Source: Methanofollis aquaemaris (lineage in GTDB: Archaea > Halobacteriota > Methanomicrobia > Methanomicrobiales > Methanofollaceae). From it: DNA of 64,000 bases. The notes under the pieces were generated by a model. That model had not been told where the DNA came from, ran no database searches, and worked only from the letters and a program-made list of their open reading frames with translations. The stretch's first letter is position 1, and the number at the start of each line of letters is the position of its first letter. The position numbers and the translations under genes were made by a program. Location of the stretch: the NCBI RefSeq assembly GCF_017357525.1, contig NZ_CP036172.1, positions 62,001 to 126,000 of the forward strand. The letters run 5' to 3'. Shown here one piece after another: positions 4,319 to 56,636 of the stretch.

Positions 4319-4600
4319 TGTAGAATTGCTCATGAAGCGAAAGCACGCCTCAAGCATACGGGATGAAAATATTTGATCAGATCTGGATCGATTCCTGACC
4401 CTCATCCTTGCGATGGAGGTGCGAATCGAAGTCGAGCATCATGCCGCCCCTCGGCTATCTTCGGTCCGTGGGGGGTCCGGGGGGTGAAACCCCCCGGCGC
4501 GAGACGGTGGGGAAGATTCGACAATTGGGGGTGGCACCTCGGATCGACATGCCTTCCGATCCCTCCCTTCACGACAGGGCCGAGGACACGGTCACCACTC
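4319..4600 (+). repeat. Interspersed modular repeat, copy A (full length)
   Basis: Begins with the core hairpin element (tgctcatgaagcg ... tcaagcatacgggatgaaaat, about 4329-4372). After a spacer comes the G+C module with ggggggtccggggggtg / ccccccggcgcgagac (about 4470-4505), then gaagattcgacaattggggg and the end box tgccttcc. It is nearly collinear with copy B at 45007, including the spacer (gatcagatctggatcgatt in both). It lies directly downstream of, and on the same strand as, the ferredoxin gene. The remaining sequence to 4777 holds no convincing gene. Confidence 0.85.
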
Positions 4601-4777
4601 ATCGCCGCCCTCGCCCCCCGAAGCGAGAGGGCTGAACAAAATCCTCCGGTGGGGGCGGCACATCCGGTCCTGCATTGTCCGATCCTTGCACGGATCGATT
4701 GCACGCCGTTCCCCGCGCTTCGATCAGATTTATGATTGAACACGCCGAACACGAACGATCAACAGAAGGCACCGGAC

Positions 4778-4954
4778 ATGCCGACACCATTCGAGATCTA
4801 TCATGACGGCGAGTGGTGGTGTGCCCGCGGCGTGGGGGCGGACATCTTCACCCAGGGCAAAACACTCGACGAACTTATGAAAAATATCAACGAGGCCGCG
4901 GCCCTCCACCTTGCGTCCCCAGAATTTTTTGAAGGAGAAGACCCAACCCGCTGA
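4778..4954 (+). CDS. HicB-like (UPF0150) small protein
   Basis: 58 residues from the ATG at 4778 (MPTPFEIYHDGEWWCARGVG). The partly swapped alpha/beta fold of HicB antitoxins is suggested by the pattern strand - WWCARG - strand - TQGKTLDELMKNINEAA. HicB proteins neutralise the HicA mRNA interferase, but no HicA-like gene is visible on either side, so this is an orphan homologue, or its partner lies elsewhere. An upstream in-frame TTG at 4736 would add 14 poorly conserved-looking residues and was not chosen. The UPF0280 gene begins 16 nt downstream. Confidence 0.7.
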   Translation: MPTPFEIYHDGEWWCARGVGADIFTQGKTLDELMKNINEAAALHLASPEFFEGEDPTR

Positions 4955-4970
4955 TCGAGAGGATTTTTTG

Positions 4971-5714: not shown

Positions 5715-5760
5715 AGGACGGGGCTTGGGGGAGGAGTCCTCTCCTAATTTCATTCGCACG
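5700..5760 (-). ncRNA. Predicted omega RNA 3' end of the tnpB element
   Basis: In IS200/IS605 elements the guide (omega) RNA covers the 3' end of tnpB and the element's right end, with guide sequence taken from the flank. Here the tnpB stop is at 5750. It is followed on the minus strand by a strong hairpin (5723-5704) and the boundary TAGTTGAC. The guide would then be roughly 5695-5675, inside the UPF0280 gene. Position is inferred from element architecture; no expression evidence. Confidence 0.45.
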
Positions 5761-7021
5761 AAGATTGCTCGTATGCGAGCCTTATTCGTACAGGCCGGTT
5801 GACGCGGCCCCTACCGATTATCTGTTCAAGAACAGAATCACCGGCTACCTTTCTCATGATGTTGATCGCACCGTTCACGTCTGCGTTCAGCAACATTCCG
5901 GTCGAACTCTGGTACAAACCCCTCTTCACCCTCCTGGATTTCCCATACTCCTGGTCCCGGATCTCATCCCCGGCCAGAGCGTCCGTCCGTGAGGTGTACG
6001 CCTCGTCCACCAGATGATACTGGATCCCGTAAAACTCGCATTTCGAGGCAAGTTTCTGCTTGAACTTCCCGTACGGGATCTGGACGAAGTTCTGGTTGTT
6101 CTTTTTCCCGTGGTTGATGCTCTGCTTGATCCCGGCAAGTTCCCCGATGCAGATGTTTCCAATACGGTTGTCCAAACAATACTGAACGATGTGGTGAACC
6201 GCACGGTTCATGAACTCGTTGATCCGGGTACCTCTGGAAACGAGAAGGCGCATCTGACGGTTTGTGAGGGATGTGATCTTCTGGTGATCCTTGATCGACT
6301 GGATCTGGGCGTTGGTCTTGTTGTACTGCCGGTTCAGAGATTTCACGTACCTACCACAGATGATCTGCGGAGTCCCGGTAACAGTATCAACGCAGGTTGC
6401 AAAATTGTCAAGCCCCAGGTCGATGGCAAGGAATCGAGATGGATCGGGGGTTGGGTCTGGCTCAGGTTTTGTTTCGGTGTACACGTACTTGATCCTGAAC
6501 GCTCGTCCGTCGTACAGGGGGAGAATGTGAATCTCCTGGACTTTATCTGCGAATGGGAGCAGGTTCTTTGGAAGAGTGAACCTGAGCATTTCATGAGCGT
6601 CAGGGTTCTGTTTCTTAAGTTCCTGAGATACGCCAAGTTGGACGATCCCGTCTATGATCGAAAACGCGTTTCGGGGGAAGGCGACGAGGAAGTAGCCGTC
6701 TTTATCAAGATACCGAGGAATAGATGGTTTATCTACTCTGCCGTTCTTGTAGAGAGAGAGCAATCCGAAGAAGGAACGCATGTTGCGCTCAACGAACTTG
6801 AGAGTTTGTTGAGCGGTTGCAGCTTGCAGGATCTTGTAATTCTCGTTCGTTTTGCAAAGGTGATAGTTCTGCGGATACTTGAGAAATGTACCGTTTTCGA
6901 AGAACCATTGGCGGGTAGTGTACAACCCGACGTTGTACAGGTTCTTCGAGCACCTACACAGGTACCGAAGCATCTGGTACTGCCGCTTGGAGCACCGGAG
7001 GTGGTTGGTCTGTGCAAGCAT
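5750..7021 (-). CDS. tnpB: TnpB-family RNA-guided nuclease
   Basis: 423 residues. A RuvC-like triad is visible: D201 (FLAIDLGLDNFA), E294 (ICIGELAGIKQ) and D381 (LLNADVNGAINI). An N-terminal helix-turn-helix-like region (SKRQYQMLRYLCRCSKNLYN) fits the RNA/DNA-binding half. TnpB proteins cut DNA next to a short TAM under omega-RNA guidance and help keep the element in the genome. The CxxC zinc-ribbon usually found between the second and third RuvC motifs is absent here (the interval reads YTSRTDALAGDE ... VKRGLYQSSTG). That is a known variant among archaeal IS1341-type proteins, but may reduce activity. Confidence 0.93.
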   Translation of the reverse strand: MLAQTNHLRCSKRQYQMLRYLCRCSKNLYNVGLYTTRQWFFENGTFLKYPQNYHLCKTNENYKILQAATAQQTLKFVERNMRSFFGLLSLYKNGRVDKPSIPRYLDKDGYFLVAFPRNAFSIIDGIVQLGVSQELKKQNPDAHEMLRFTLPKNLLPFADKVQEIHILPLYDGRAFRIKYVYTETKPEPDPTPDPSRFLAIDLGLDNFATCVDTVTGTPQIICGRYVKSLNRQYNKTNAQIQSIKDHQKITSLTNRQMRLLVSRGTRINEFMNRAVHHIVQYCLDNRIGNICIGELAGIKQSINHGKKNNQNFVQIPYGKFKQKLASKCEFYGIQYHLVDEAYTSRTDALAGDEIRDQEYGKSRRVKRGLYQSSTGMLLNADVNGAINIMRKVAGDSVLEQIIGRGRVNRPVRIRLAYEQSSCE

Positions 7022-7129
7022 AGATAATAATAGAATTATGTAAACATGAGGATGTTGGTTGCGCGAGAGGGAAGAAGGTCAAAAGGGGCGCCGCTCTCAT
7101 CCCCGGCCTGAAGGCCGGGGTCTTCACGC

Positions 7130-7285
7130 TCTGCCCCTTTACCCCGCAAGATAAATGTGATCTCGGGGGTCTCGGGGGAAGCGCCCCTCGGTGCGTAGGC
7201 GGGGGAAGGCGTGATGATCCGACGTGCCGCCCTCAATTGCAGAATCTCCCCGGCCATCTCGCGCCGGGGGGCCGTGCCCCCCTCA
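7130..7285 (-). repeat. Interspersed modular repeat, copy K (G+C module only)
   Basis: On the minus strand the sequence starts immediately after the stop of the next gene with ggggggcacggccccccggc (7283-7263), then gcgagatggccgggg, a gattctgcaattgagggcgg stretch and the ggatcatcacgccttcccc end. The order matches copies D, F and H but lacks the core hairpin. It abuts the stop codon, so the repeat was inserted at, or evolved from, the very 3' end of the gene. Confidence 0.7.
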
Positions 7286-7684
7286 TCACGCGAGGTGCTC
7301 GTAGACGTAATCGACCGCCCGCTCCCGCGCTCCCTTCCCGGTGAAGCGTTCGTAGGTCTTCTCCCCGTCGGTGACCTCCACCGCCGCTCCGTCTTTGCCG
7401 ACCAGAAAGATCAGTTCGAAGACATCGGCCTCGTCGAAGAAGACGCCTTTGAGAGTTTCCGAGGCCGGGGTGAGCATCAGCCGCTCGGCCTGGAGTTCGC
7501 CGCCCGGTTCTTCCCTGAAAAAATAGAGGTATGTCTGGTAGGCGTTGAGGAGGTCTGAGGTGAGGATTTCGAATCTCAGGTCTTCGGAGAGGTCGTCGAG
7601 GAGACGGACAAGTCGTTCGTCGTCTTCGTCGGCCTTTTCGAGGAGTCGGTCGGCGATCTCTGCAAGTTCCTGGTAATCGGTCAT
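7286..7684 (-). CDS. Conserved-looking acidic protein of unknown function
   Basis: 132 residues from the ATG at 7684 (MTDYQELAEIADRLLEKADE). It is acidic and soluble, without signal peptide or membrane segment. The N-terminal third is helical; the middle (LMLTPASETLKGVFFDEADV ... IFLVGKDGAAVEVTDGEKTY) looks beta-rich and ends in a helix (GARERAVDYVYEHL). I do not recognise the family. It is divergent from the operon that starts at 7721, with only 36 bp between them, and ends against repeat copy K. Confidence 0.75.
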   Translation of the reverse strand: MTDYQELAEIADRLLEKADEDDERLVRLLDDLSEDLRFEILTSDLLNAYQTYLYFFREEPGGELQAERLMLTPASETLKGVFFDEADVFELIFLVGKDGAAVEVTDGEKTYERFTGKGARERAVDYVYEHLA

Positions 7685-7720
7685 ACCTTCTCTCCTCGTC
7701 TCTTCAGGATAAAGTATATT

Positions 7721-11540: not shown

Positions 11541-11547
11541 GTAACAG

Positions 11548-12830: not shown

Positions 12831-12871
12831 ACGAGCGCAAGGTTGATGCGGCCTGCGACGTATGAGGGACT

Positions 12872-13822: not shown

Positions 13823-13857
13823 GGGGGAATTTTTTGGAGAATCCGGCTGTGTTGGGC

Positions 13858-14110
13858 CGGGCATGAAGCGAGAGCACATCTCAAGCATGCCGCATGAGAA
13901 TCTCATGTCGCAGTCCTCCGGGTGTGGAAGGATCGATCCTCGATCTTTCTCCTTGTGACCGTGGAGCGAACGGAAATCGAGCATCGTGCCGCCCCCGCCT
14001 ATCCTCTGTCCGTGGGGCGCTGCCCCCCGGCGCGAGATTGCGGTGAGGGGTCTGCAATGAGGGCGGCCCGTCGGATCATCGCGCCTTCCCACACCATACG
14101 CGCCGGGGTC
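13858..14110 (+). repeat. Interspersed modular repeat, copy C
   Basis: The core is gggcatgaagcgagagcac ... tcaagcatgccgcatgagaat (13859-13905). After a divergent spacer comes a shortened G+C module (gtggggcgctgccccccggcgcgagattgcgg), then tctgcaatgagggcggcccg and the gatcatcgcgccttccc end. It sits downstream of, and on the same strand as, the oxidoreductase gene. The remaining bases to 14192 show nothing else. Confidence 0.8.
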
Positions 14111-14964: not shown

Positions 14965-15099
14965 CACGTCATCGACTCCAGGACCGGGATCATCGCACTG
15001 CACCCATGGAAGGATGCCCCTCCGGGGTTATAAGATCGAGCGACGCGGGGCGAATGTGAAGTCGTGCCCCGGAATAAAACCGAAACCTGGCTCTGTTGA

Positions 15100-15790: not shown

Positions 15791-15860
15791 AACGTGCATG
15801 GGCACGGGAGGCGATCGCTCCTCCCTCTCATCGCCCCTTCAATCGTCCGGCCTCGATCCG

Positions 15861-15980
15861 AATCGAACAAAAAAATCGAACAAAAAAACCACACCTGAAA
15901 AAAAACCGAACAAAAAAAAACCACACCAGAAAAAAAACCGAACAAAAAACCGAACAAAAAAACCACGCCAGAAAAAAATC
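15861..15980 (+). repeat. A-rich short tandem repeats
   Basis: Alternating gaacaaaaaaa and ccacaccagaaaaaaaac blocks, about five to six units, give a strongly purine-asymmetric tract in otherwise G+C-rich DNA. It contains A-runs of 7-9. No coding pattern. Such tracts bend DNA and exclude nucleosome-like proteins, but no role can be assigned. Confidence 0.7.
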
Positions 15981-23641: not shown

Positions 23642-24430
23642 ATGCCGCTCCATGCCGGGATCCGCAACTTTGTGACAGGAGTCTTCTCCACCCATACCTC
23701 AGGTCGGCGCTTCCTGGAGATCGATCTCCTGCGCGGCGCGGCGATCCTGATGATGGTCCTCTACCACCTCCTCTTCGACCTCTCCTACTTCGGGATCGCA
23801 GACGTGGAGGTGCACACCGGGTTCTGGAAACTCTTCGCCATGGTGACCGCCTCGCTCTTCATCGCCCTCGCCGGACTCTCGCTTCCGATCAGTTATGCCC
23901 GCAGAAAAGACCGGCTCACCGGGCGTGCGCTCTGGGCCGACTACGCACGCCGCGGCGGGAAAATTTTCCTGTACGGCCTCCTCGTCACCCTCGCCACCTG
24001 GCTCTACCTCGGCGACGGCTTCGTGGTCTTCGGGATCCTCCACCTCATCGGCTTCGCCATCATCGTCGCCCCCTTCTTCCTCAGGCTCGGCCTCTGGAAC
24101 CTCCCCGTCGGCGCGGCGTTCATCCTCGCCGCCGTCCCGCTCAGCGGAGTCAACGGCCCGTACTGGCTCCTCTGGCTTGGCATCCACCCGACCGCCTTCT
24201 ACAGCGTCGACTATGTCCCGGTCATCCCCTGGCTCGGCGTGGCCCTCATCGGGATGGCGATCGGGTTCTGGCTCTACCCTGAAGGAGAGAGGCGTTTCAG
24301 GATCCCGGAGATGAACGGCCGGTGGGCCGCCGAACTCCTCGCTCTTTGTGGCAGGCACTCGCTCTTCATCTATCTCGTCCACCAACCCGTGATACTGGGG
24401 CTGCTGATGGGCCTCGGGCTTGTGGCGTGA
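23642..24430 (+). CDS. HGSNAT-like (DUF1624) membrane acyltransferase
   Basis: 262 residues with seven to eight membrane helices. The opening FLEIDLLRGAAILMMVLYHL is the family signature, with the Asp-Arg pair in the first helix and a His in the loop (MVLYHLLFDL). C-terminal LCGRHSLFIYLVHQPVILGL is typical of membrane acyltransferases of this clan. The family resembles heparan-alpha-glucosaminide N-acetyltransferase, which moves acetyl groups across a membrane. In methanogens the acceptor is unknown, perhaps a surface glycan. Confidence 0.88.
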   Translation: MPLHAGIRNFVTGVFSTHTSGRRFLEIDLLRGAAILMMVLYHLLFDLSYFGIADVEVHTGFWKLFAMVTASLFIALAGLSLPISYARRKDRLTGRALWADYARRGGKIFLYGLLVTLATWLYLGDGFVVFGILHLIGFAIIVAPFFLRLGLWNLPVGAAFILAAVPLSGVNGPYWLLWLGIHPTAFYSVDYVPVIPWLGVALIGMAIGFWLYPEGERRFRIPEMNGRWAAELLALCGRHSLFIYLVHQPVILGLLMGLGLVA

Positions 24431-24439
24431 CGGCGGCGG

Positions 24440-24655
24440 TCTGATCGACGTGCCTTCCACGCTCGCGCCGGAGGCGCTGCCCCCGGAACCTCGGGGATGA
24501 AGATAGGGATGGGAAGGCAAAATCAACAAACATGATGAGGGACTTACCGTCCCCCCGCAGAGATAGCCATCCAGAGGGTTTACCGTGAAAAACTTTTGAT
24601 GAGGTATGTCTGAGGCGTGCTTTCGCTTCATGAGCGATTCAACAGAGCCGAAAAA
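24440..24655 (-). repeat. Interspersed modular repeat, copy I
   Basis: Minus-strand core: gattcgagc-free variant cgctcatgaagcgaaagc ... cctcagacatacctcatc (24645-24597). After ggtaaaccctc and the ggggggacggtaagtccc spacer comes the third module, tgccttcc ... ggaaggca, with a G+C palindrome (ccggaggcgctgcccccgg). It lies downstream of the minus-strand gene at 24740, on the same strand. Confidence 0.7.
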
Positions 24656-25156: not shown

Positions 25157-25279
25157 CTTCTTCCTCCAGATATCGGTGCCGGAGAGGCACCCTGATCAAC
25201 ACTTGACAGGTGCGGATAAATATTCCCGAAATACCCGGAGTGCAACCGTTGAACCGATCGGTTCAACGATATGATTTGT

Positions 25280-25530
25280 AGAATTTTGTATGAACCCCAT
25301 GCTCAAGCATACGGGATGAACATTTTTCGTCGCTTGCTCGCTTTTTTTCAAGACAGGAGAATCGGTGGAGACCTTGTTCCATCGCCGCCCCCACCTATCT
25401 TCGTCCGTGGGGGGGTCCGGGGGGCGCGGCCCCCCGGTGCGAGACGGCGGGGAAGATTCTGCGATTGAGGGCGGCGCCTCTGATCATCACGCCTTCCCAT
25501 TCGGACATGAAGAGTGCTTTCACTTCATGA
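25280..25530 (+). repeat. Interspersed modular repeat, copy D, with a second inverted core
   Basis: Left: tgtagaattttgtatgaacc and gctcaagcatacgggatga (25277-25322), then a spacer and the complete G+C module (gggggggtccggggggcgcg / gccccccggtgcgagac), gattctgcgattgagggcgg and gatcatcacgccttccc. At the right edge an inverted core-like piece (tgaagagtgctttcacttca, 25509-25528) overlaps the kinase stop codon. Confidence 0.8.
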
Positions 25531-28064: not shown

Positions 28065-28154
28065 CCTCTGATGCGCCCCGACGGTATGAAACCTTCACCT
28101 CATGAGAGGGGGGCCCGGCGGATGCATCAACCGGAACAGAAAACATCGGGCCTT

Positions 28155-28410
28155 GTAGAATACTCATGAGCTGAGAGCACGCCTCAGGCATACTGCATGA
28201 AAATTGTTCTGAGCGATCTCTGAGGTGTTGAGGGCACCACTCAATCGCCGCCCCTCGGCCCTCTTCATCCGTGGGGGGTCCGGGGGGCACGGCCCCCCGG
28301 TGCGAGACGGCAGGTTTGAATTCTTCTCGTGGGGCGGCACGTCTGATCGACCTGCCTTCCCGGGCCCTGTCCTGATGCTGGGGGATCGGGGGCGGCCATC
28401 CCCCCGCAGA
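28155..28410 (+). repeat. Interspersed modular repeat, copy E
   Basis: Core ttgtagaatactcatgagc ... cctcaggcatactgcatgaaaat (28154-28203), spacer, then ggggggtccggggggcacgg / ccccccggtgcgagac, tggggcggcacgtctgatcg and cctgccttccc. It is followed by a piece shared with copy I (ccccccgcagagatagcc, 28399-28416). It lies between the FHA gene start and the marker 8 gene end, thus not in the usual same-strand 3' position. No gene in the interval 28065-28489. Confidence 0.8.
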
Positions 28411-28489
28411 GATAGCCGTCCGGAGCAGTTCTACAAAGACAAAAATTGAAAAATTGTGCGGGTTCGATTGGCCGAACCCCTCGATTCGA

Positions 28490-36995: not shown

Positions 36996-37436
36996 GGTCA
37001 GTACCGTCTTCCATTTCGATATTGTCCCGAGGGTATATTAACTCCTAGTTGCGCACATCGGTCCGGGGACGGTATGGAAGGCTGTCGACCCCTCCACCTC
37101 CTTCCTCCCACGAGGCTCTCAGGCAACCGGGTGAAGGAACGGCATGATCTTCTGGAGCGCGGGGATCGATCCGTTTCTTCGATCTCGGATTGTCCTGAAC
37201 CGCATCGGTGGTGCATCTCAGAGAGGTCACTTCAAAACCATCCGCCCGGAGGCGCGGACGAAGGGGGTTTGGGAGGCACGGCGTGCTTTGAAGTTGTCGT
37301 CACCCGGCGCGAGAGATCAGGTGAGTATTCTCGCCCTTCTGATCCCATGCCTTCCCTCATGAATCGCGCCGGGGGCGCTGCCCCCGAAGACAAACCCTCC
37401 TGCTCTCATCACGAGGAGAGGCCCTCCCCACCCGCT
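36996..37436. other. Gene-free interval with a fragment of the modular repeat (copy L)
   Basis: The first 330 bp show no recognisable gene or structure beyond a TATA-like stretch (ggtatattaact, 37031-37042) that suits the PhoU gene. Around 37345-37395 is a fragment of the repeat family: tgatcccatgccttccctc and the palindrome gccgggggcgctgcccccg. The MgtE-like gene ends just beyond. Confidence 0.6.
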
Positions 37437-43042: not shown

Positions 43043-43435
43043 TCAAGGGGAGCATTTCTCAGACAATATCATAAAACTTTCTAAGTATTTAATTTGTTGA
43101 AATAAGATAATAATGGAAAAATGGAGTTCTTATGGGGTCATATGTCCATGTTAAGTACATTTGGCCATATTTGCCTGCCATGGTCGCCCGGGCGGCGGCA
43201 CATCCGGAGCATATCCCGGAGTGTTGGAGGGTTGAACATTCATCCGGACCGAAGGGTTCTCACATGGCAGGTCATCACTCAACCGTCGGATCTGTAGACT
43301 CCCTTGATGAAGTTCCTCATGACAGGGGGAGAGAGGGCGGTGATTTTTCAGAGGGTGTCCCCCTCCTCTGCCGATCCGTCACACAGGGGCAAGGGTGTGA
43401 TCAGCCCCTCATGGTCACTCCGGAAGAGGAATTAC

Positions 43436-43505
43436 CATGAAAAACTTTTCATGAGGTATGCCTGAGGCGTGCTTTCGCTTCATGAGCAATTCAACAGAGC
43501 CGGAA
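43436..43505 (-). repeat. Interspersed modular repeat, copy J (core only)
   Basis: Minus-strand core: ttgctcatgaagcgaaagc ... gcctcaggcatacctcatg (43489-43446), nearly identical to copy I, including the flanking ggctctgttga. The G+C module is not evident. The position between the sensor kinase start and thiC is not the usual same-strand 3' site. Confidence 0.7.
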
Positions 43506-45001: not shown

Positions 45002-45006
45002 CAGTT

Positions 45007-45255
45007 CTGTAGAATTTTGCATGAGGCGAGCGCCCGCCTCAAGCATACGCGATGAAAATATCAGATCAGATCTGGATCGATTCTTGACCCTCATCCTTGC
45101 GTTCGAGGAGTGAATCGAATTCGAGTATCATGCCGCCCCCACGTATCTTCGGTCCGTGGGGGGTCCGGGGGGTGAACCCCCCGGCGCGAGATGGCAGGGA
45201 AATTTCGACGATTGGGGGCGGCCGATCGGATCGACGCGCCTTCCCTATCAAAACC
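45007..45255 (+). repeat. Interspersed modular repeat, copy B (full length)
   Basis: Core ctgtagaattttgcatgagg ... cctcaagcatacgcgatgaaaat (45006-45060). Next is a spacer shared with copy A (gatcagatctggatcgattc), then ggggggtccggggggtgaac / ccccccggcgcgagatgg and gattgggggcggccgatcgg, with the gcgccttccc end. It directly follows the thiC terminator on the same strand. The core stem GAGGCG/CGCCTC is perfect here. Confidence 0.87.
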
Positions 45256-45278
45256 GATAGTGCCGATCTTCGAGATCA

Positions 45279-45329
45279 TTTTCATAGTAATTGCTCATGA
45301 ACCTGCGGTTCAAGCATACGCTATGAAAA
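45279..45329 (+). repeat. Stand-alone repeat core forming a two-part hairpin
   Basis: Outer arms TTTTCATAG (45279-45287) and CTATGAAAA (45321-45329) enclose an inner stem GCT-TGAACC / GGTTCA-AGC around a tgc loop. The flanks tcaagcatac and atgaaaat match other cores, but the inner stem sequence (TGAACC) differs from the usual GAGGCG while keeping pairing. Confidence 0.75.
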
Positions 45330-45354
45330 TTTGGGTGGGTCCGGGATGCCCTCC

Positions 45355-46128: not shown

Positions 46129-46214
46129 GGGGGTATCAGGATCGGCATGTGTTTTTGTTTGTTTTGTATGGGTGGTGATACGGGAAGTCCGTTGGTATCC
46201 GGGTGATCCAGGAT

Positions 46215-46475
46215 CGGAGACCCTCGGCGCGTATGGTGTGGGAAGGCACGATGATCAGGCGTGCCGCCCTCATCGCAGAACTTTTCCCCCACAATCTCAC
46301 GCCGGGGGGCCTTGCCCCTCGCCAGACCCCCCACGACGAGGATAGGCGGGGGCGGCGATGAAGCGACGTCTCCACCAGTTATCCTGTCTTGAAAAAGAGC
46401 GATCGAGCGACGAGAAATTTTCATCGCGTATGCTTGAAACGAAGGTTCATGCCCGATTCTACAGGGATCGTTTTC
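46215..46475 (-). repeat. Interspersed modular repeat, copy F
   Basis: Minus strand: tgtagaatcgggcatgaacc, then cttcgtttcaagcatacgcgatgaaaat (46473-46421), spacer, gccgcccccgcctatcctcg, the G+C module split by a short insertion (gtggggggtctggcgagggg / caaggccccccggcgtgag), ttctgcgatgagggcggcac and cgtgccttccc. It lies 36 bp after the stop of the last paralogue, on the same strand. The gap 46129-46214 shows nothing else. Confidence 0.8.
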
Positions 46476-46510
46476 TCATCCGCGTTTCACAAAAACAGGA
46501 GAAGAGGAGA

Positions 46511-47452
46511 TCAGTACAACCCCTTCCCGAGTTCAGGGACCGCAGGGATGTACTGGAAGAACGTCCCGGTTCCTTTCTCTCCTTCCACAGTTCCACCGAA
46601 GAAGTACGCCGGTTTGAGATAGGGTTGCTCGTCCCGTGGAGGACTTGCATAATACCCAATTTTGATCTCGTTTATGGTCGCTTTTTGTGGTGAACTCACC
46701 GCGGTGACGATGCCGGTCTGTTTGAGTTCTTCGATTGCTATCTCAGGAGAGATGATCTCGAACTCCCTGTACGGTTCGGCCTCGCGCCAGCGCTTGAAGA
46801 CTCTGAGGATATCTCCCTCTCCACCAACGGTGACATACATCCAGTTTCCGAAGACCGGGAGGTTGTTCAGCGTGCCAGTGAATGAGACCTGAGTGTCTTT
46901 ATAAGTTTGAATGGACGTACCGTCGGTATGATTTGAGAAAAATCCCTCACCATGCGCAACACTCGAATACACTGCTCCTTCAGGCATAAGATCGTGAGAG
47001 GTGAGGAACTTCTCGGCGATCTTCTGTGCCTCCTCATCGTCTGGGAGATGTTCTGGGAAATCTCGGTATCCTTCACCTTTGTTCCACCGACTATACCAGG
47101 TATAGGACAAACAACCTCCCTCCTTTTCAAACTCAAATGTATAGGGATCGCCTTTGATGGAGTATGACAGTACCCTCTCTTCAAGTGGTCCGGACATCCC
47201 GAACTTCTCCGCCATCTTCAGCGCGTCGTCTTTTGACACGGCGGTATCAACCGTCTTGTAGACCATGACCTCTTCTAGAGATCTGGGAAGGGGAATATCA
47301 AAAGTGATCTCCGGGATCTTCTGCGTAGGATAGAGCCCGGTGGGATCGTGGTGCAGGTCTTTATCCTCCTCGTATGGACACTCTGCTGGCAAAAGTGCCG
47401 TCCCGCCAATGATCAGCAGGAGGACGATCAGTCCGATTATGATCTGTTTCAT
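46511..47452 (-). CDS. Exported protein, tandem paralogue 1 (most downstream)
   Basis: 313 residues. N-terminal anchor MKQIIIGLIVLLLIIGGTAL; the rest is extracellular-type. Architecture: SKDDALKMAEKFGMSG helix and strands ending TFEFEKEGGCLSYTW, then AQKIAEKFLTSHDLMPEGAV, then VTVGGEGDILRVFKRWREAE and a C-terminal YYASPPRDEQPYLKPAYFF. The repeated helix-plus-strands pattern resembles PepSY/YycI-type domains (inference). This copy has the most divergent N-terminal third (HHDPTGLYPTQKIPEITFDI). Confidence 0.82.
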   Translation of the reverse strand: MKQIIIGLIVLLLIIGGTALLPAECPYEEDKDLHHDPTGLYPTQKIPEITFDIPLPRSLEEVMVYKTVDTAVSKDDALKMAEKFGMSGPLEERVLSYSIKGDPYTFEFEKEGGCLSYTWYSRWNKGEGYRDFPEHLPDDEEAQKIAEKFLTSHDLMPEGAVYSSVAHGEGFFSNHTDGTSIQTYKDTQVSFTGTLNNLPVFGNWMYVTVGGEGDILRVFKRWREAEPYREFEIISPEIAIEELKQTGIVTAVSSPQKATINEIKIGYYASPPRDEQPYLKPAYFFGGTVEGEKGTGTFFQYIPAVPELGKGLY

Positions 47453-47491
47453 TTTTTCATCTGAGTTTCACAAAAATAGGAGAAGAGGAGA

Positions 47492-48439
47492 TCAGTACAG
47501 CCCCTTCCCGAGTTCAGGGACCGCGGGGACGTACTGGAAGAACGTCCCGGTTCCTTTCTCTCCCTCCACCGATCCACGGATGGAATAGGTCGGTTTTAAG
47601 TACGGCTGTTCGTCTCCAGGCGGGCTCGCATAGTAACAGAGTTTGATTGTGTCGATGGTTGCTTCCCTGGGAGAACTCACGGTCGTGACGACCCCGGTCT
47701 GTTTGAGTTCTTTGATCGCGTTCTCAGGGGATATGATCTTGAACTCCCTGTACGGTTCGGCCTCGCGCCACCGTTTAGCGACCTTAAGGATATCACCATC
47801 TCCACCAACAGTGACATATATCCCATTTCCGGCCACCGAAAGGTTGCTCAGCGTGCCGGTGAAGAGAACTTTACTGTCTTTATACGTGACAATAGGTGCT
47901 TCTCCCTTATGGTTTGAAAAGATTCTCTGACCATGTGATACACTCGAATAGATCGCTCCCTCAGGCATGAGATCATGGGATGTCAGGAATGTTTCGGCAA
48001 TCTTACGTGCTTCCTCATCAGTCGGGAGATATTGGGGTCGATCTCTTGTGTTATATCCTTTCCATCTCCCCTCCCATGTGTATGTCATATAACCGGTTTC
48101 TTTCTCGATCTCGAACGTGTAGGGATCATCTTTGATGACATACCAAATCCCGCTCCTACTCTCTTCAACCGGTCCGGACATTCCGAACTTCTCTGCTATC
48201 TTCTGTGCATCGTCCTTTGATACGATGGTATCGACTGTCCTGTAGACCATGACTTTTTCGGGGTATTCGGGGAGGGCGATGTCGCAGGTGACCTCGGAGA
48301 TCTCCTGTACGCCGTACGGTCCGACAACTTCAATCCCCCTGTGTACGTCTTCATCTGACTGCGGATGTTCCACCGGCAGCAGCGTCGTCCCGCCGATGAT
48401 CAGCAGGAGGACAGCAAGTCCGATTGCGATCTGTTTCAT
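47492..48439 (-). CDS. Exported protein, tandem paralogue 2
   Basis: 315 residues of the same family. MKQIAIGLAVLLLIIGGTTL anchor, then DVHRGIEVVGPYGVQEISEV. With copy 3 it shares SRSGIWYVIKDDPYTFEIEK and YLKPTYSIRGSVEGEKGTGT. Its middle (HGQRIFSNHKGEAPIVTYKD) is partly its own. The 39-bp gap to copy 1 is nearly the same sequence as the other inter-copy gaps, so the duplication unit includes the gap. No own promoter is evident. Confidence 0.82.
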   Translation of the reverse strand: MKQIAIGLAVLLLIIGGTTLLPVEHPQSDEDVHRGIEVVGPYGVQEISEVTCDIALPEYPEKVMVYRTVDTIVSKDDAQKIAEKFGMSGPVEESRSGIWYVIKDDPYTFEIEKETGYMTYTWEGRWKGYNTRDRPQYLPTDEEARKIAETFLTSHDLMPEGAIYSSVSHGQRIFSNHKGEAPIVTYKDSKVLFTGTLSNLSVAGNGIYVTVGGDGDILKVAKRWREAEPYREFKIISPENAIKELKQTGVVTTVSSPREATIDTIKLCYYASPPGDEQPYLKPTYSIRGSVEGEKGTGTFFQYVPAVPELGKGLY

Positions 48440-48478
48440 TTTTTCATCCGCGTTTCACAAATACAGGAGAAGAGGAGA

Positions 48479-49426
48479 TCAGTACAATCCCTTCCCGAGT
48501 TCAGGGACCGCGGGGACGTACTGGAAGAACGTCCCGGTCCCTTTCTCTCCCTCTACCGATCCACGGATGGAGTAGGTCGGTTTTAAGTACGGCTGCTCGT
48601 CTCCAGGCGGGCTTGCATAGTAACAGAGTTTGATTGTGTTGATAGTTGCTTTCCTGGGAGAACTCACGGTCGTGACGATCCCGGTCTTTTTGAGTTCCTC
48701 TATCGCCTCTCCGGGAGAGAGGATCTCGAACTCTTTATAGGGTTCGGCCTCCCGCCAGCGCTTGCAGACTTTGAGAATGTCACCGCCCCCGCCGATGGTG
48801 ACAGAGATCCCGCTTCCGGCCACCGAAAGGTTGCTCAGAGTGTCGGTGAAGAGGACTTTACTGTCTTTATAGGTCTGAATGGATGTACCGTCAGTATGAT
48901 TCGAAAAGAACCCCTCCCCGTGCGATACACTTGAATAAACAGCACCCTCTGGCATGAGATCATGAGAGGTGAGGAACGTCTCGGCGATCTTTCGTGCTTC
49001 TTCGTCGGTCGGGAGGTTTTCGGGGCGATCTCTGGGGTCCACCCCGGAATAGCGGCCGGTCCACGTATAGGTCATATACCCGGCTTCTTTCTCGATCTCG
49101 AGTGTGTAGGGATCATCTTTGATGACATACCATATCCCGCTTCTACTCTCTTCAACTGGGCCGGACATCCCGAACTTCTCCGCCATCTTCAGGGCATCGT
49201 CCTTCGATGCGGTGGCGTCTGAACTCTTGTAGACCATGACTTTTTCGGGGTATTCGGGAAGGGCGATGCCGCAGGTGACCTCGGAGATCTCCTGTACGCC
49301 GTACGGTCCGGCAACTTCAATCCCTCCGTGTACGTCTCCATCTGCCTGCGGATGTTCCACCGGCAGCAGCGTCGTTCCACCGATGATCAGCAGGAGGACG
49401 ATCAGTCCGATTGCGATCTGTTTCAT
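48479..49426 (-). CDS. Exported protein, tandem paralogue 3
   Basis: 315 residues. Its front and back halves follow copy 2 (SRSGIWYVIKDDPYTLEIEK; YLKPTYSIRGSVEGEKGTGT), but its middle segment (YSSVSHGEGFFSNHTDGTSI) is the copy 1 type and VDPRDRPENLPTDEEARKIA is the copy 4 type. This patchwork indicates recombination between copies. Same N-terminal membrane anchor and C-terminal VPAVPELGKGLY. Confidence 0.82.
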   Translation of the reverse strand: MKQIAIGLIVLLLIIGGTTLLPVEHPQADGDVHGGIEVAGPYGVQEISEVTCGIALPEYPEKVMVYKSSDATASKDDALKMAEKFGMSGPVEESRSGIWYVIKDDPYTLEIEKEAGYMTYTWTGRYSGVDPRDRPENLPTDEEARKIAETFLTSHDLMPEGAVYSSVSHGEGFFSNHTDGTSIQTYKDSKVLFTDTLSNLSVAGSGISVTIGGGGDILKVCKRWREAEPYKEFEILSPGEAIEELKKTGIVTTVSSPRKATINTIKLCYYASPPGDEQPYLKPTYSIRGSVEGEKGTGTFFQYVPAVPELGKGLY

Positions 49427-49465
49427 TTTTTCATCCGCGTTTCACAAAAACAGGAGAAGAGGAGA

Positions 49466-50413
49466 TCAGTACAACCCCTTCCCGAGTTCAGGGACCGCGG
49501 GGATGTACTGGAAGAACGTCCCGGTTCCTTTCTCTCCCTCAGCAGTTCCACCGAAGAAGTACGCCGGTTTGAGGTACGGCTGCTCGTCCCGTGGAGGGCT
49601 TGCATAATACCCAATTTTGATCTCGTTTATGGTCGCTTTTTGTGGTGAACTCACCGCGGTGACGATGCCGATCTGTTTGAGTTCTTCGATCGCGTCCTCG
49701 GGGGAGAGGATCTCGAACTCCCTGTACGGTTCGGCCTCGCGCCAGCGCTTGAAGATTCTAATGATATCTCCCTCTCCACCGACGGTGACATACATCCAGT
49801 TTCCGAAGACCGGGAGGTTGTTCAGCGTGCCGGTGAATGAGACCTGCATATCTTCTGAAGAGACGATGGATGTATTTTTTTCTGCATCTAAAAAGTGTCC
49901 CTGACTATGCCGTACGCTCTTGTAGATCGCCCCTTCGGGCATGAGATCGTGAGAGGTGAGGAACGTCTCGGCAATCTTGCGCGCCTCCTCGTCGGTCGGG
50001 AGATTTTCGGGGCGATCCCTGGGATCTACATTGTTCCACCTACCATACCAGGTATAAGATAAGCAACCCCCTTCCTTTTCAACCTTAAATGTATAGGGAT
50101 CACCTTTGATGGAGTATGACAGTACCCCCTCTTCAAGTGGTCCGGACATCCCGAACTTCTCGGCCATCTTCAGTGCATCGTCTTTTGACGCGTTGGTATC
50201 GACTGTTCTGTAGACCATGACCTTTTCAGGATATTTGGGGAGGACGATGTCGCAGGTGACCTCGGAGATCTCTTGGGCGCTGTACGGTCCGGTAACTTCA
50301 ATCCCCCTGTGTACGTCTTCATCTGCCTGCGGACGTTCCACCGGTATCAGTGCCGTCCCGGCGATGATCAGCAGGAGGGCGACCAATCCGATTGCGATCT
50401 GTTTCTTTATCAT
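49466..50413 (-). CDS. Exported protein, tandem paralogue 4 (most upstream)
   Basis: 315 residues from ATG 50413 (MIKKQIAIGLVALLLIIAGT), with aagga about nine bases upstream; earlier ATGs at 50422 and 50434 are possible. C-terminal half and GVLSYSIKGDPYTFKVEKEG belong with copy 1, while the N-terminal third (DEDVHRGIEVTGPYSAQEIS) belongs with copies 2 and 3. It has a unique middle (HSQGHFLDAEKNTSIVSSED). It begins 6 bp beyond the stop of the caspase-like gene and is probably on the same message. Confidence 0.82.
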   Translation of the reverse strand: MIKKQIAIGLVALLLIIAGTALIPVERPQADEDVHRGIEVTGPYSAQEISEVTCDIVLPKYPEKVMVYRTVDTNASKDDALKMAEKFGMSGPLEEGVLSYSIKGDPYTFKVEKEGGCLSYTWYGRWNNVDPRDRPENLPTDEEARKIAETFLTSHDLMPEGAIYKSVRHSQGHFLDAEKNTSIVSSEDMQVSFTGTLNNLPVFGNWMYVTVGGEGDIIRIFKRWREAEPYREFEILSPEDAIEELKQIGIVTAVSSPQKATINEIKIGYYASPPRDEQPYLKPAYFFGGTAEGEKGTGTFFQYIPAVPELGKGLY

Positions 50414-50418
50414 CGAAA

Positions 50419-51858
50419 TCATTCCTTCATGCATAAATTTACTTCGTACTGGAAATTCGGCGGATCGCCGGGCGGGTTGATCGACGACCCGTACCCGTAA
50501 ATGTGGTCGTCAAGACAATCCGGCGTACTCAGATCGCCGTCGATGTCGGCGGCAAGAATCGCCGACCGAAGACTGCCGTCATTCGGGAACACGTACTGAT
50601 CCGTCGCCGCGGACCACGCCTCCCAGATGGTTTCTCCGTCCATCAATTGCTGTGCAAAATACCAACCCATATCAGGGTGAGCGCCTCCGATAGTGTCGAA
50701 GCCGCAGATGGAGTGGAGCCCCTCGAAGGCGTCTTCCCAGTGTTCTCTTGTCGTTGCATTGAGGGTGCTGCATGACCCGAGGACGATCCAGTCGGTCTTC
50801 GTGTTGCCCCAGCGCACCTCGTCGTAGTTCAGGCTGTAATCGTCGGAAGCCGTCCCGAAGGCGAACCCATCCGACCCCCCATGCCCTACAAAGAAGGCCA
50901 TGTGCGCGCTGTCGCTGTAGTCAGAGTCTGCCCCACCGAAGGCAGGATCTTTCCAGTGCCGTTCCATAGCGGCGTCATTGCCGTTGATGAACTTCCCGTT
51001 CCATAAACTTGAAGAGGTGAGAGTGTCGTAAAAACCCTCGGCTTCGTCATCGGCGCTTGGAAGGGGGTCCATTGCGCCATGGTAGTCCCCCACCCATTCG
51101 GCGCAGCAGGAATAGGTCCTGTAGCGCGGGTAGGTCAGGTCTCCCTCCTCCGCCATGTACACCCAGTACCCCTTTCCTGGAAACATCAGGCGCTGGTCGC
51201 TGTGGCTGCCGGTGCCGTCCCTTTCCATGCTGACTTCGTCTGCCTGTGTTCCTGTATCATACCCATGTGCTTTTGACCAGGCACTCCCGAGGGGGAGGAG
51301 CATGTCCCGCGCGCAGGCCTGGTGCACATCCCAGAAGCCGATGGCATTCCAGCCTGAATAAAGGTGTTTTACCGGTGCCCTTTGTTCCTGCTCAGGTTTG
51401 AAATGCAGCCGAATCCGATATGGTCCTGTTGAGTAGATCCATACCCCCTCAAGCGGCCTGAATTCGTCTTGCGAGCCCATCGCTTCCCATCGGTCATTTG
51501 CCCCATCATAGTGGAAGATGGAATGACCGCCCGAATCAACGTCTTCGAAGATTTGCATCGTGTCATACCCGTCGGCAAGTTGGAGTGGTGTCGAGACGAC
51601 ATTCCATCCCTCATAAAGTATCAGGGAATTCGATGTTGGATCAAAGGCGGTTGCCGGATACAACGCGCCTCCGTCCCGTGCTGTCGGGGATTCCGACGGT
51701 CCTCATCCCGGGGGATGGGGAGGAGTCAAATTCTCTGCGGCGAGAGTATCGACAGCGGTCGAAACCGCTGCCGCCCCTGCGGCAGGGATCAGCATTGCTG
51801 TTGATAGCAGGAGTATCAACACTACCCCGCTGTTCCAGAGTGCTGTTTCTTGTTTCAT
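50419..51858 (-). pseudogene. Caspase-fold-like secreted protein (DUF6345 type) split by an in-frame TGA
   Basis: One frame of 480 codons from ATG 51858 (SD ggagag upstream) to 50419, interrupted only by TGA at 51705-51703 (codon 52). Before the stop: signal peptide ALWNSGVVLILLLSTAMLIP ending AAGAAA. After it: two GWN-type surface repeats (LILYEGWNVVSTPLQLADGY; HLYSGWNAIGFWD) and a C-terminal domain with AFFVGHGGSDGFAFG and DWIVLGSCSTLNA. These have the His-Gly and Cys of a caspase/gingipain-like dyad. A TTG at 51663 could start a leaderless-signal product, which would not be exported. It may be a recent nonsense mutation, readthrough or sequence error. Methanomicrobiales are not known to use selenocysteine. 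Confidence 0.75.
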
Positions 51859-52277
51859 GCGTTTCACTCTCCTTGATAGGCGTATGTCCGAAAGGCATGA
51901 AACGGAGTTAAATAGAGAGAGTTCTATACTGGGTCATGCCCTCGGGCAACACCGGCGTTCGGTTCTGGTCTGGAAGCCTGCCCGGATGCCGGTGGGATAC
52001 CAATCCCTGGTATCCGCGAGTTAGAATAATTCATTCTTATATATCTGACTTTTTAATTTATTAAATGGCAGCTTTTGATAAGCCCATTAAGTATCGGAGA
52101 TTTCATGAACTATATTGAGAAAAGATCCTAAAAATATGCTTGAGAAGACCGGCTGTCTTCGAAGAACTTCCGACGAAAGCGAGAGGGATGAAGTTTGATT
52201 TATATTCGCTCCGAGCATGGGATTTTTGACAAAGCCAAAAAGACAGAAAGATAACCCCCGCCTCCCAATCTCCTCCC
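51859..52277. other. Intergenic region with hairpin and AT-rich divergent promoter DNA
   Basis: It contains the hairpin GGATACCA-atccc-TGGTATCC (51995-52015) and AT-rich stretches (ttcttatatatctgac, about 52031; gatttatattcgc, about 52197). These suit promoters for the leftward caspase-like cluster and the rightward AhpD-like gene. No gene seen. Confidence 0.55.
51995..52015. promoter_or_regulatory. Perfect 8-bp-arm inverted repeat upstream of caspase-like cluster
   Basis: GGATACCA and TGGTATCC around atccc, 137 bp upstream of the ATG at 51858. Candidate operator or structured leader for the five-gene cluster. Confidence 0.4.
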
Positions 52278-52670: not shown

Positions 52671-52679
52671 ACGGCGGCT

Positions 52680-52935
52680 CTGAAGAATCGCTCATGAGGC
52701 GAGCGCACGCCTCAGGCATACCGCATGAATATTGTTCTGAACGGATCTCCGGGGTGTGGAAGGATCCTTGATCCCTCTCAATCGCCGCCCCTCGGCGCGA
52801 GACGGCGGTGAAGATTCTACAATCGGGGCGGCACGTCTGATCACCATGCCTTCCCCTATCTTCACACCGGGGGCGCTGCCCCCGAGACCCACGACCATTT
52901 TCATCCCATGTGCTTGAGCCCGGGGATCATGCCCA
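52680..52935 (+). repeat. Interspersed modular repeat, copy G, with inverted core at both ends
   Basis: Left core: gctcatgaggcgagcgcac, gcctcaggcataccgcatga (52688-52729). A shortened G+C module (ccctcggcgcgagacggcgg), gattctacaatcggggcggc and tgatcaccatgccttcccc follow, then the palindrome ccgggggcgctgcccccgag. At the right end, on the minus strand, is tgtagtattgggcatgatcc plus ctcaagcacatgggatgaaa (52941-52896). The two inverted cores delimit a ~250-bp unit. Confidence 0.82.
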
Positions 52936-52990
52936 ATACTACACGGCCCGAACAACGGATTTATCCCGGATCTTGTCCAACGCCTCAGGG

Positions 52991-53584: not shown

Positions 53585-53597
53585 AAAGGGCACGCAC

Positions 53598-53610
53598 AAT
53601 TTTTAAATAC
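53598..53610 (+). promoter_or_regulatory. TATA box and leader of cdc48
   Basis: aatttttaaatac is a consensus TATA element 46-58 nt before the ATG at 53656. A leader of about 25-30 nt ends in an SD-like gaggtg (53645-53650) five bases before the start. This is one of the clearer leadered genes in the window. Confidence 0.7.
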
Positions 53611-53655
53611 TGGTTGCACTAACTTGTAGTAAGTCACTCTCAACGAGGTGCAACG

Positions 53656-56103
53656 ATGCCAAAAGACCAGGTTGAAGTCATCGTCAAAGAAGCATATCAC
53701 GAGGACGCAGGCCGGGGGATTGCGCGCGTCGGGATCGACGTGATGAAGGCCCTCAACCTCGTCTCCGGTGATGTGATCGAGATCCAGGGCCGCGAGAAAG
53801 CCGCGGCCATCGTCTGGCCCGGCTATCCCGAGGATACCGGCCGGGGAATTGTCAGGATCGACGGCAACATCAGGAGCGACGCACGGGTCGGGATCGACGA
53901 TACCGTCAGAGTCAGAAAAGTGGAGGCAGGCTACGGCCAGAAGGTGGTCATCCAGCCCACCCAGCCGATCCGGCTCGTCGGCGGCGAACAGTATCTCCGC
54001 CGGCTGATGGCCGGGCGGCCGGTCTTCGAGGGACAGTCCTTCAGGATCAACGTCCTCGGCAACCCCCTCACCTTTGTCATCTCAAAGGTGACCCCGCGGG
54101 GAATCGCGATCATCACCGACACGACCGAGATCGAACTGAAGGAGACACCGTACAAACCTGAAGAAGGAAAACGCAAACCGGTCTCCGACGTCCACTACGA
54201 GGACATCGGCGGACTGGGTCGGGAACTCGACATGGTCAGGGAGATGATCGAACTCCCCCTGCGCCACCCCGAGATCTTCGAGCGCCTCGGGATCGAGCCC
54301 CCGAAGGGCGTGCTTCTCTACGGCCCGCCCGGCACCGGCAAGACGCTCATCGCCAAGGCCGTCGCCAACGAGGTGGACGCCCACTTCATCTCGATCTCGG
54401 GCCCCGAGATCATGAGCAAGTACTACGGCGAGTCTGAGGAACGGCTGCGCGAGGTCTTCGAGGAGGCCCAGGAGAACGCCCCGACGATCATCTTCATCGA
54501 CGAACTCGACTCCATCGCTCCGAAGAGGGAGGAGACGAAGGGTGAGGTGGAGCGCCGCGTCGTCGCCCAACTCCTCGCCCTGATGGACGGGCTCGAGACC
54601 AGAGGACAGGTCGTGGTCATCGCCGCCACCAACATCCCCGACGTCCTCGACCCGGCGCTGCGCCGGGGCGGACGGTTCGACCGCGAGATCGAGATCGGGA
54701 TCCCCGACAAGAAGGGGCGGCACGAGATCCTCCAGGTCCACACCAGGGGCGTGCCCCTCGCCGAGAACGTCGACCTCGACCACCTGGCAGAGATCACCCA
54801 CGGTTTCGTCGGGGCCGACGTCTCCCTTCTGGTGAAGGAGGCGGCGATGCACGCCCTCCGCAAGGTGATCCCGAAGATCAAGGCAGAGGAGGAGATCCCC
54901 GCCGAACTGATCGAGGAACTGAAGGTGACCGGAGAGAACTTCGACGAGGCCCTCAAGCACGTCGAACCCTCGGCGATGCGCGAGGTGCTCGTCGAGGTGC
55001 CCGACGTGAAGTGGACCGACGTCGGCGGGCTCGAAGAGGTGAAGGCCGATCTCACCGAGGCGGTGGAGTGGCCGCTGAAGTACCCGGAGGTCTTTGCCAG
55101 GTTGCAGACCAAACCGCCCAAGGGCATCCTCCTCTTCGGCCCGCCCGGCACCGGCAAGACGTTGCTTGCCAAGGCGACCGCAAACGAAAGCGAGTGCAAC
55201 TTCATCTCGGTGAAGGGGCCCGAACTCCTCTCGAAGTGGGTCGGCGAGTCTGAGAAAGGCGTGCGAGAGATCTTCAGGAAGGCACGGCAGGCGGCGCCGT
55301 CGATCATCTTCTTCGACGAGATCGATTCCCTGGTGCCGCGGCGCGGCTCGTACTCGGACTCGACGCATGTCACCGAGAGCGTCGTCTCCCAGCTCCTCAC
55401 CGAACTCGACGGCCTGGAAGAACTCAAGGATGTCGTGGTCCTGGGTGCGACGAACCGGCCCGACATGCTCGACGAGGCCCTGATGCGCCCCGGCAGGCTC
55501 GACCGCGTCGTCTATGTCCCGCCGCCGGACAAAGAGAGCAGAGAGAAGATCTTCGAGGTCTACCTCCGCGGCACCGAGGGACTCCTCGCCGCCGACGTCG
55601 ACGTCGACGCCATGGTGGACCGGACCGAGGGCTTTGCCGGCGCCGACATCGAGGCGGTGGTGAGAGAGGCGAAACTGGCGGCGATGCGCGAGTTCATCGA
55701 CGCGATGCGGGACAAGTCGCCGCAGGAGCGCGACGACGCCGTTGCGAACGTGCGGGTCACGAAGAGACACTTCGATGCGGCCTTCGAGAGGGTGAAACCC
55801 TCCCTCCCCAGGGAGCGGCTCGAAGAGTTCGAGAGGCTCTCCTGGGAGATCCTGTACTCGGGCGAACAGCGGGCCGCCCTCGAGAAGGCCTCTTCCCTCG
55901 TCAAGCGTGCCGGCCTGGTCAAAGAGGCCGGGAAGGACGAAAAGATCAAGGATCTGGTCGGGGCCCTGGAGGCCGCAACCTTTGCCAGGAAGAAAGACTT
56001 TGCCGGGATCAGGCAACTCACCGAAGACCTGGAGACAAAACTCGAAGCGTTCAGGAAAAAACCGACCTTTGCGGGCATCACGCCCCCGATGAGCGGAGCC
56101 TGA
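53656..56103 (+). CDS. cdc48: CDC48/p97-type AAA ATPase
   Basis: 815 residues. The N-domain (1-185; double-psi barrel [20 protein letters not shown] plus a second half) precedes two AAA domains. D1: Walker [11 protein letters not shown], Walker [14 protein letters not shown]2: [10 protein letters not shown] and [15 protein letters not shown]. Second regions of homology are [20 protein letters not shown] and [20 protein letters not shown]. As a hexamer it unfolds proteins and feeds them to the proteasome. The C-terminal tail of about 80 residues is longer and more helical than in eukaryotic p97. Strong TATA box and SD upstream. Confidence 0.97.
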
Positions 56104-56636
56104 ACGCGCTCAAGATCCGCCCACCTTTTTTTCAGGGGATGGAAATCCTTCCTGATGGCTCTGTTGAATCGGGCGTGAACCGGGAGCACGCCTCAGGCAT
56201 ACTGCATGAAAATTGTTCAGAGCGAGTTCCAGGGTGTGGAAGGATCTTTGATCCTTCTCAATCGCCGCCCCTCGGCTATCTTCGCCGTGGGGGGTCCGGG
56301 GGGCAACGCCCCCCGGCGAGAGACGGCGGTGAAGATTCTGTGGTCGGGGCGGCACGTTGGATCATCACACCTTCCCCCCTCCTCGCGCCGGGGGCGCTGT
56401 TCCCGAACTCCGGGGATGGCGATAGGGACGGGAAGGCGGAGGGCTGATCGTTCAGAGTGTCTGTTTCTCCTTGTGAGGATGACAGGGCGAAACTTCCATA
56501 TATGGCCTCCGTGGCCGCCTGAACTTCCCATTCCCTCAAACTTCGGACAATTTATCCCCAATATCCAATAAAGTGGATGAAAAATGCGCCCTTGAAATGC
56601 CTAATCTATAAATATCATGGTTGGCGATTACTGACT
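56104..56636. other. Gene-free interval containing repeat copy H and TPR-gene promoter
   Basis: After repeat copy H the remaining sequence (56450-56636) has no recognisable gene. A TATA-like ctataaatatc (56606-56616) lies about 25 nt before the TPR-gene ATG. Confidence 0.55.
56155..56445 (+). repeat. Interspersed modular repeat, copy H (three modules)
   Basis: Core gttgaatcgggcgtgaaccg ... cctcaggcatactgcatgaaaat (56161-56213) and a spacer shared with copy G (gggtgtggaaggatc). Then ggggggtccggggggcaacg / ccccccggcgagagac, gattctgtggtcggggcggc, and the third module accttccccc ... gggaaggcgg enclosing gccgggggcgctgttcccg. It follows cdc48 on the same strand. Confidence 0.85.

What the first reader, a model, noticed from the sequence alone, without database searches (positions are those of the whole stretch)
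4319..56445. Family of modular interspersed repeats: hairpin core plus G+C palindromic modules
At least a dozen places (about 4319, 7130, 13858, 24440, 25280, 28155, 37345, 43436, 45007, 45279, 46215, 52680, 56155) carry parts of one element in a fixed order. First is a core (TGTAGAAT, N3-5, ATGA, short stem, TCAAGCATACG, GATGAAAAT). Then comes a spacer, a module GGGGGGTCCGGGGGG / CCCCCCGGCGCGAGACGGC, a GATTCTGCGATTGGGGGCGGCA-like stretch ending in TGCCTTCC, and sometimes a third palindrome GCCGGGGGCGCTGCCCCCG. Copies are diverged, partial or complete, in both orientations, and carry no gene. Such a family could be a non-autonomous mobile element, a structured 3'-UTR/RNA family, or binding sites for a chromosome-organising protein.
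Basis: seen in the sequence. Interest (0 to 1): 0.75.

Follow-up and report, generated by a model that had tools for sequence, protein, structure and literature searches.

The report
Nested IS110 and IS5 miniature transposons
The repeats are two kinds of gene-less jumping DNA stacked inside each other in the methanogen Methanofollis: small elements of the RNA-guided IS110 type that insert at one exact position in the tips of another miniature transposon of the IS5 type.

Summary
The repeats are real and genome-wide: at least 151 cores in this Methanofollis genome, 0 to over 84 in congeners, almost none elsewhere in the order. (1) TGTAGAA is the tip (GGCTCTGTWGAA) of IS5-type miniature elements: 27 of 128 facing tip pairs have perfect 8-bp target duplications (0.56 expected), as do 1-kb IS5-family elements with the same tips. 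(2) The rest is the left end of a second element, E (58 to about 420 bp), ending TTTTCATGGTAA and always inserted, one way round, at GGCTCTGTWGAA^AYCCTC: 166 of 168 cores follow a tip or another E, and 24 copies have paralogues with the tip uninterrupted. IS110-family elements of Methanomicrobiales have E's ends; one intact copy sits in the same IS5 tip, and its leader has bridge-RNA-like loops matching target and ends. Methanofollis keeps only decayed copies of that IS110. Best reading: E is a non-autonomous IS110 derivative, once mobilised in trans by an RNA-guided recombinase and carried by IS5-type miniature elements. The G+C palindromes are cargo of unknown origin. Not shown: movement, bridge-RNA expression.

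The parts
4314..4560 (+). decayed IS5-type tip (4314-4325), then E left end (from 4326), spacer and G+C module (4441-4558); no right end recognised
   Evidence: R1 and R2 matches; shared with congener G005
7203..7300 (-). G+C module without core
   Evidence: R2 match
13845..14090 (+). IS5-type tip, E left end, spacer, shortened G+C module (13986-14090)
24580..24637 (-). complete 58-bp E (left end at 24637, right end at 24580) between tip GGCTCTGTTGAA (24638-24649) and ACCCTC
24430..24520 (-). G+C module in the interior of the carrier next to the 58-bp E
   Evidence: R2
25272..25498 (+). decayed IS5-type tip, E left end and G+C module (25382-25498)
   Evidence: the segment 25271-25542 is missing from the syntenic gap of G005
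28149..28440 (+). IS5-type miniature element (292 bp) with E left end at its left tip, G+C module, and a right tip; flanks AAACATCG / AAAAATTG look like a worn 8-bp duplication
37300..37395 (+). core-less relic of the G+C modules
   Evidence: sequence
43432..43489 (-). complete 58-bp E between tip GGCTCTGTTGAA (43490-43501) and TTCCTC
45015..45290 (+). complete E of 276 bp (left end to ...TTTTCATAGTAA) after tip AGTTCTGTAGAA (45003-45014), with G+C module 45130-45245
45291..45340 (+). left end of a second E joined in tandem to the right end of the first
46240..46468 (-). tip, E left end (46407-46468) and G+C module (46240-46358)
52676..52948 (.). IS5-type miniature element with E left ends facing inward at both tips (52676-52742 +, 52887-52948 -)
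56157..56376 (+). intact tip GGCTCTGTTGAA (56157-56168), E left end and G+C module (56262-56376)

Best explanation
Two layers of gene-less mobile DNA. Layer 1: IS5-type miniature elements with tips GGCTCTGTWGAAAYCCTC, moved in trans by an IS5-family transposase with 8-bp target duplication. Layer 2: element E, a non-autonomous derivative of an IS110-family insertion sequence, which keeps only the IS110 ends (left end TYNNNCATGA-stem-TCAAGCATAC, right end TTTTCATGGTAA) and sometimes extra palindromic cargo. An IS110 recombinase carrying a bridge RNA whose target loop reads TGTTGAA/AAACCCT inserted E, in one orientation, between GAA and AYCC of the IS5-type tips. The outer 12 bp of each tip survive, so the loaded carrier can still transpose and copy E. 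Shown: ends, insertion point, filled and empty tips, target duplications, intact IS110 with the same ends and target, loop-target and loop-end matching. Inferred: bridge-RNA action, mobilisation in trans, continued mobility of loaded carriers, loss of the IS110 from most Methanofollis.
For: E ends: 49 complete units, 13 of them 58-59 bp. Context: 152 of 168 distinct cores follow an IS5 tip, 14 follow another E, and 2 are unclear. Filled versus empty: 24 non-tandem copies match the same carrier without E at 70-95% identity; shuffled control at most 55%. Target duplications: 27 of 128 tip pairs have a perfect 8-bp repeat, 0.56 expected, including carriers with E at one or both ends. IS5 family: transposase NF033579, 237 bits against a cut-off of 140; 1007-1008-bp elements with the same tips and 8-bp duplications. 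IS110: intact element in HGW-Methanomicrobiales-6 with E's ends inside GGCTCTGTTGAA|...|ACCCT, NF033542 298 bits; relatives across the order with the same kind of ends; decayed copies in Methanofollis G005 (at an IS5 tip) and G003. Guide matching: loop 1 with left target, loop 1 with right target, and loop 2 with the right end exceed permutations (reached by 1, 2 and 0 of 5000). Turnover: orthologous gaps gain and lose copies.
Against: No IS110 gene was found in this genome or in six other congeners, several of them rich in E, so mobilisation is historical inference. The one intact IS110 in the genus (G004, 52% identical) is not at an IS5 tip. The loop segments were picked by eye from related elements, and one role-swapped control was marginal (92 of 5000). 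Loop 1 reads the target in the order reported for IS1111 rather than IS110, while the leader lies upstream as in IS110. The empty tips are paralogues: no orthologous carrier was compared with and without E.
Confidence: 0.88

Rival explanations
1. One IS5-type miniature element with an unusually long (about 60 bp) terminal inverted repeat; copies without the core arose by deletion.
For: Facing cores at both ends of 300-650-bp units; core-ended units with 8-bp duplications.
Against: Inserts of 58, 82 and about 420 bp occur at the same position in one carrier family that also exists uninterrupted. E has its own right end, forms E-E tandems, and both its ends are those of IS110 elements.
Confidence: 0.06
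2. An IS200/IS605-type (single-strand, Y1 transposase) miniature element or a REP/RAYT-type family, since it has subterminal hairpins, no target duplication and fixed orientation.
For: Two-hairpin fold of the 58-bp form.
Against: Y1 transposases are absent from E-rich genomes G003, G005 and G009 and present in G007, which has none; no convincing core lies near any of them; IS110 explains both ends.
Confidence: 0.03
3. A conserved RNA or 3'-UTR element, or a protein-binding site kept by selection for a cellular role.
For: G+C palindromes, intergenic positions, high copy number.
Against: No Rfam match, weak consensus structure, rapid turnover between congeners with 0 to over 84 copies, and precise insertion and duplication footprints.
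Confidence: 0.03

Closest known systems
IS110/IS1111-family insertion sequences with bridge RNA or seekRNA (PMC11208160, PMC11187229)
   Same: Recombinase family, orientation-specific insertion at a defined sequence, non-coding leader upstream of the gene, loops matching target and donor ends. A transposase-less ISEc21 construct with 29-bp and 16-bp ends moved in trans (PMC11187229), which fits the 58-bp E.
   Different: E has no gene and no recognisable bridge RNA; the target is the tip of an IS5-type element; the loop order looks like IS1111 although the leader is upstream.
[quoted passage not shown]
   Same: An IS1111-type element that targets transposon ends.
   Different: There the inserted element is autonomous and the host is a Tn21-family transposon; here the guests are miniature, in dozens to hundreds of copies, inside IS5-type miniature elements.
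IS5-family MITEs and their parent IS (transposase family NF033579)
   Same: Tips, 8-bp duplication, 170-800 bp, no gene.
   Different: Many carry IS110-type guests in one or both tips.
QMITE2 of Coxiella burnetii targeted by IS1111 (PMC10969869)
   Same: IS1111-type insertion into a miniature element.
   Different: Full-length IS1111 at a palindrome, not a gene-less derivative in a transposon tip.

Membership tests
IS5-family MITE (carrier) | tips shared with an autonomous IS of the family | tested here: met
   GGCTCTGTWGAA in 1007-1008-bp elements with NF033579 transposase
IS5-family MITE (carrier) | target duplication of the same length as the parent | tested here: met
   8 bp in the parent and in 27 of 128 tip pairs
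IS5-family MITE (carrier) | mobilised in trans by that transposase | not testable with these tools
   needs a transposition assay
IS110-derived non-autonomous element (E) | both ends shared with an autonomous IS110-family element | tested here: met
   L217/L293 left end TCGGGCATGAATGTGGATTCAAGCATACC and right end TTTTTCATGGTAA
IS110-derived non-autonomous element (E) | same insertion point and orientation as the parent | tested here: met
   GGCTCTGTTGAA|element|ACCCT in the parent; 152 of 168 cores at the tip, none convincingly reversed
IS110-derived non-autonomous element (E) | no transposase gene of its own | tested here: met
   13 of 49 units are 58-59 bp and most are under 450 bp
IS110-derived non-autonomous element (E) | parent has a bridge/seek RNA matching target and ends | tested here: met
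   permutation tests of loop matches; segments chosen by eye, expression not tested
IS110-derived non-autonomous element (E) | two-base core shared by donor and target | tested here: inconclusive
   AA is compatible on both sides but boundaries are ambiguous by about 2 bases
IS200/IS605 or REP/RAYT family | associated Y1 transposase | tested here: not met
Rfam-type structured RNA | match to a curated family | tested here: not met
   no match above gathering score

The most novel reading that the evidence does not exclude
A family of RNA-guided miniature elements, down to 58 bp, that specialise on the tips of another transposon, leave that transposon's outer end intact, and have multiplied to well over 100 copies per genome together with it: non-autonomous bridge-RNA-mobilised elements at high copy number in archaea.
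Probability: 0.7. Interest if true: 0.72.

Novelty: new variant of a known kind. Interest (0 to 1): 0.62.

Why it matters
IS110 elements are of current interest because their bridge RNA makes recombination programmable. Natural gene-less IS110 derivatives show how little end sequence may suffice and offer hundreds of natural insertions with known target variants. The nesting shows an RNA-guided element using a transposon tip as a niche that its host transposon can then copy. It also explains an intergenic repeat family present in well over 100 copies in several Methanofollis genomes.

Tried and rejected
A single long-TIR IS5 MITE: first conclusion from facing cores, dropped after filled and empty tips were found. 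IS200/605: raised by hairpins and lack of duplication, dropped after the Y1 survey. IS110 was at first dismissed because PF02371 found only one copy in the genus, in G004, and that copy is not at an IS5 tip; the genome-contig scan then led to the intact element. Core as RNA: no consensus fold. The first duplication test, on core pairs only, was weak (4 of 24 with at most 1 mismatch); all tip pairs gave the clear result. Viral contigs: no match. Literature: no paper in the library joins IS110, MITE and bridge RNA, and the few with IS110 family and MITEs do not describe this; absence from this library is not proof of novelty.

Full report
What is there. The window is G000:C1:62001-126000 of a 2.75-Mb single-contig genome. 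Named records that share congener contigs place the genus as Methanofollis (contig length of G001:C178 equals that of JAQVHG010000004, Methanofollis sp. STE_20). The core model R1 finds 12 cores in the window and at least 151 in the genome. Congeners have from 0 to 84 or more (capped), and of 49 other genomes of the order only two have any. Counts of the G+C module model R2 are high in the same genomes.

Layer 1. Cores often face each other 270-650 bp apart. The outermost 12 bases, GGCTCTGTWGAA, are also the tips of about 1-kb elements in congeners that encode an IS5-family transposase and that are flanked by 8-bp repeats such as gaacaatc and gtgcatat. Of 128 pairs of facing tips in all fetched DNA, 27 have a perfect 8-bp repeat outside; shuffling partners gives 0.56, and the next 8 bp outward give none. 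These include carriers with no core, with a core at one tip, and with cores at both tips. So the carriers are IS5-type miniature elements.

Layer 2. In a G005 IS5 element (L133) 58 bp lie between GGCTCTGTTGAA and ACCCTT of an otherwise normal tip. A subfamily of about 420 bp, 92-97% alike between four species (G000, G008, G009, G010), has the same two junctions. Listing all units from left end to right end gives 49, in classes of 58-59, about 82, 240-310 and 360-450 bp. Larger ones include a unit with a nested IS (L144) and one with a decayed IS110 gene (L101/L318). Right ends are followed mostly by AYCCTC-like carrier sequence or by another left end. Of 168 distinct cores 152 lie just after a tip (147 with exactly five bases between GAA and CATGA), 14 after another right end, and 2 are unclear. 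For 24 units outside tandems, the sequence after the unit matches a carrier whose tip is uninterrupted (70-95% over 40 bases; shuffled at most 55%). One carrier family occurs empty and with units of 58, 82 and about 420 bp. Thus E is a separate element inserted at one point of the tip and in one orientation.

Who moves E. Y1 transposases do not track E. A scan of 84,980 species for the core found it in HGW-Methanomicrobiales-6 directly upstream of a transposase. That 415-aa protein is an IS110-family RNA-guided transposase (NF033542, 298 bits against a cut-off of 140; PF01548 and PF02371). Its left end lies in GGCTCTGTTGAA and its right end, GATCAGTTTTTCATGGTAA, is followed by ACCCT. Many relatives at 41-58% identity in other families of the order have CATGA...CAAGCATAC-type left ends about 205 bp before the gene and ATTTTCATnnnAA-type right ends 18-43 bp after it. 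Methanofollis itself retains decayed pieces: G005 (80% identity, left end in tip GGCCCTGTAGAA) and G003, plus smaller fragments in G006 and G007. G004 has an intact but more distant IS110 that is not at an IS5 tip. G018, outside the genus, has a decayed copy inside a tip.

Guides. The upstream leader of these IS110 elements has two conserved loops. In loop 1 of the intact element one side reads AAGGGTTT, the reverse complement of AAACCCTT, and the other reads TGTTGAA, the left target. Across 13-14 relatives the loop segments fit their own left flank, right flank and right end better than others' (permutations reaching the observed sum: 1, 2 and 0 of 5000; role-swapped controls 3099 and 92 of 5000). 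This is the pattern described for bridge RNA (PMC11208160) and seekRNA (PMC11187229). The order of the two guides looks like that reported for IS1111. The segments were aligned by eye, so this is supporting rather than decisive evidence.

Turnover. Between this genome and the syntenic stretch of G005 (about 90% identical) most gaps that hold a core in one genome lack it in the other. At 25272 the whole unit is missing in G005 and present in G003.

Mechanism. Shown: two element types, their ends, E's single insertion point, IS5 duplications, an IS110 parent with E's ends and target. Inferred: an IS110 recombinase with a bridge RNA acting in trans inserted E; loaded carriers were then spread by IS5 transposase, since E leaves the outer 12 bp; the IS110 gene was later lost from most species. 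The published finding that 29-bp and 16-bp ends suffice for a mini-IS of ISEc21 (PMC11187229) makes a 58-bp E plausible.

Left open. The origin of the G+C palindromic modules, which occur inside E, inside carriers and alone, is unexplained. Counts in several genomes are capped. Loci were mostly chosen because they hold cores, so the ratio of occupied to empty tips (142 to 82) is biased.

Noticed in passing
window 46190-52234: A 6-kb block absent from the syntenic place in G005 (about 10 bp there): four tandem paralogous genes of 313-322 aa (repeat period 981-987 bp; the one tested has no Pfam match) and a DUF6345 protein.
   Followed up: partly
window 5750-7021: TnpB (OrfB_IS605, Cas12f1-like) gene in a gap that is much shorter in G005 and G003: probably a polymorphic IS605-type insertion; an IS605-like end hairpin lies near 7100.
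   Followed up: no
window 15089-15990: A perfect IS5-type tip next to a tandem array of 209-211-bp units and a run of CCGAACAAAAAA-like repeats.
   Followed up: no
G+C modules, e.g. window 4441-4558, 7203-7300: Palindromic modules recur inside E, inside carriers and alone; the third palindrome resembles the reverse complement of the second one's hairpin. Their origin is unexplained.
   Followed up: partly
L293, L298-L308 leaders: Guide order in loop 1 looks like IS1111 although the leader is upstream as in IS110.
   Followed up: partly
L202, L206 (Methanolinea), L229 (Methanoregula): Related two-hairpin units with ATTTTCAT-type ends in other genera, some in tandem, not obviously at IS5 tips: possibly other IS110-derived miniature families.
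   Followed up: no
L144 (G005): A 1488-bp carrier with E at both tips, perfect duplication gataatat, and a different DDE element of about 870 bp nested inside one E.
   Followed up: partly
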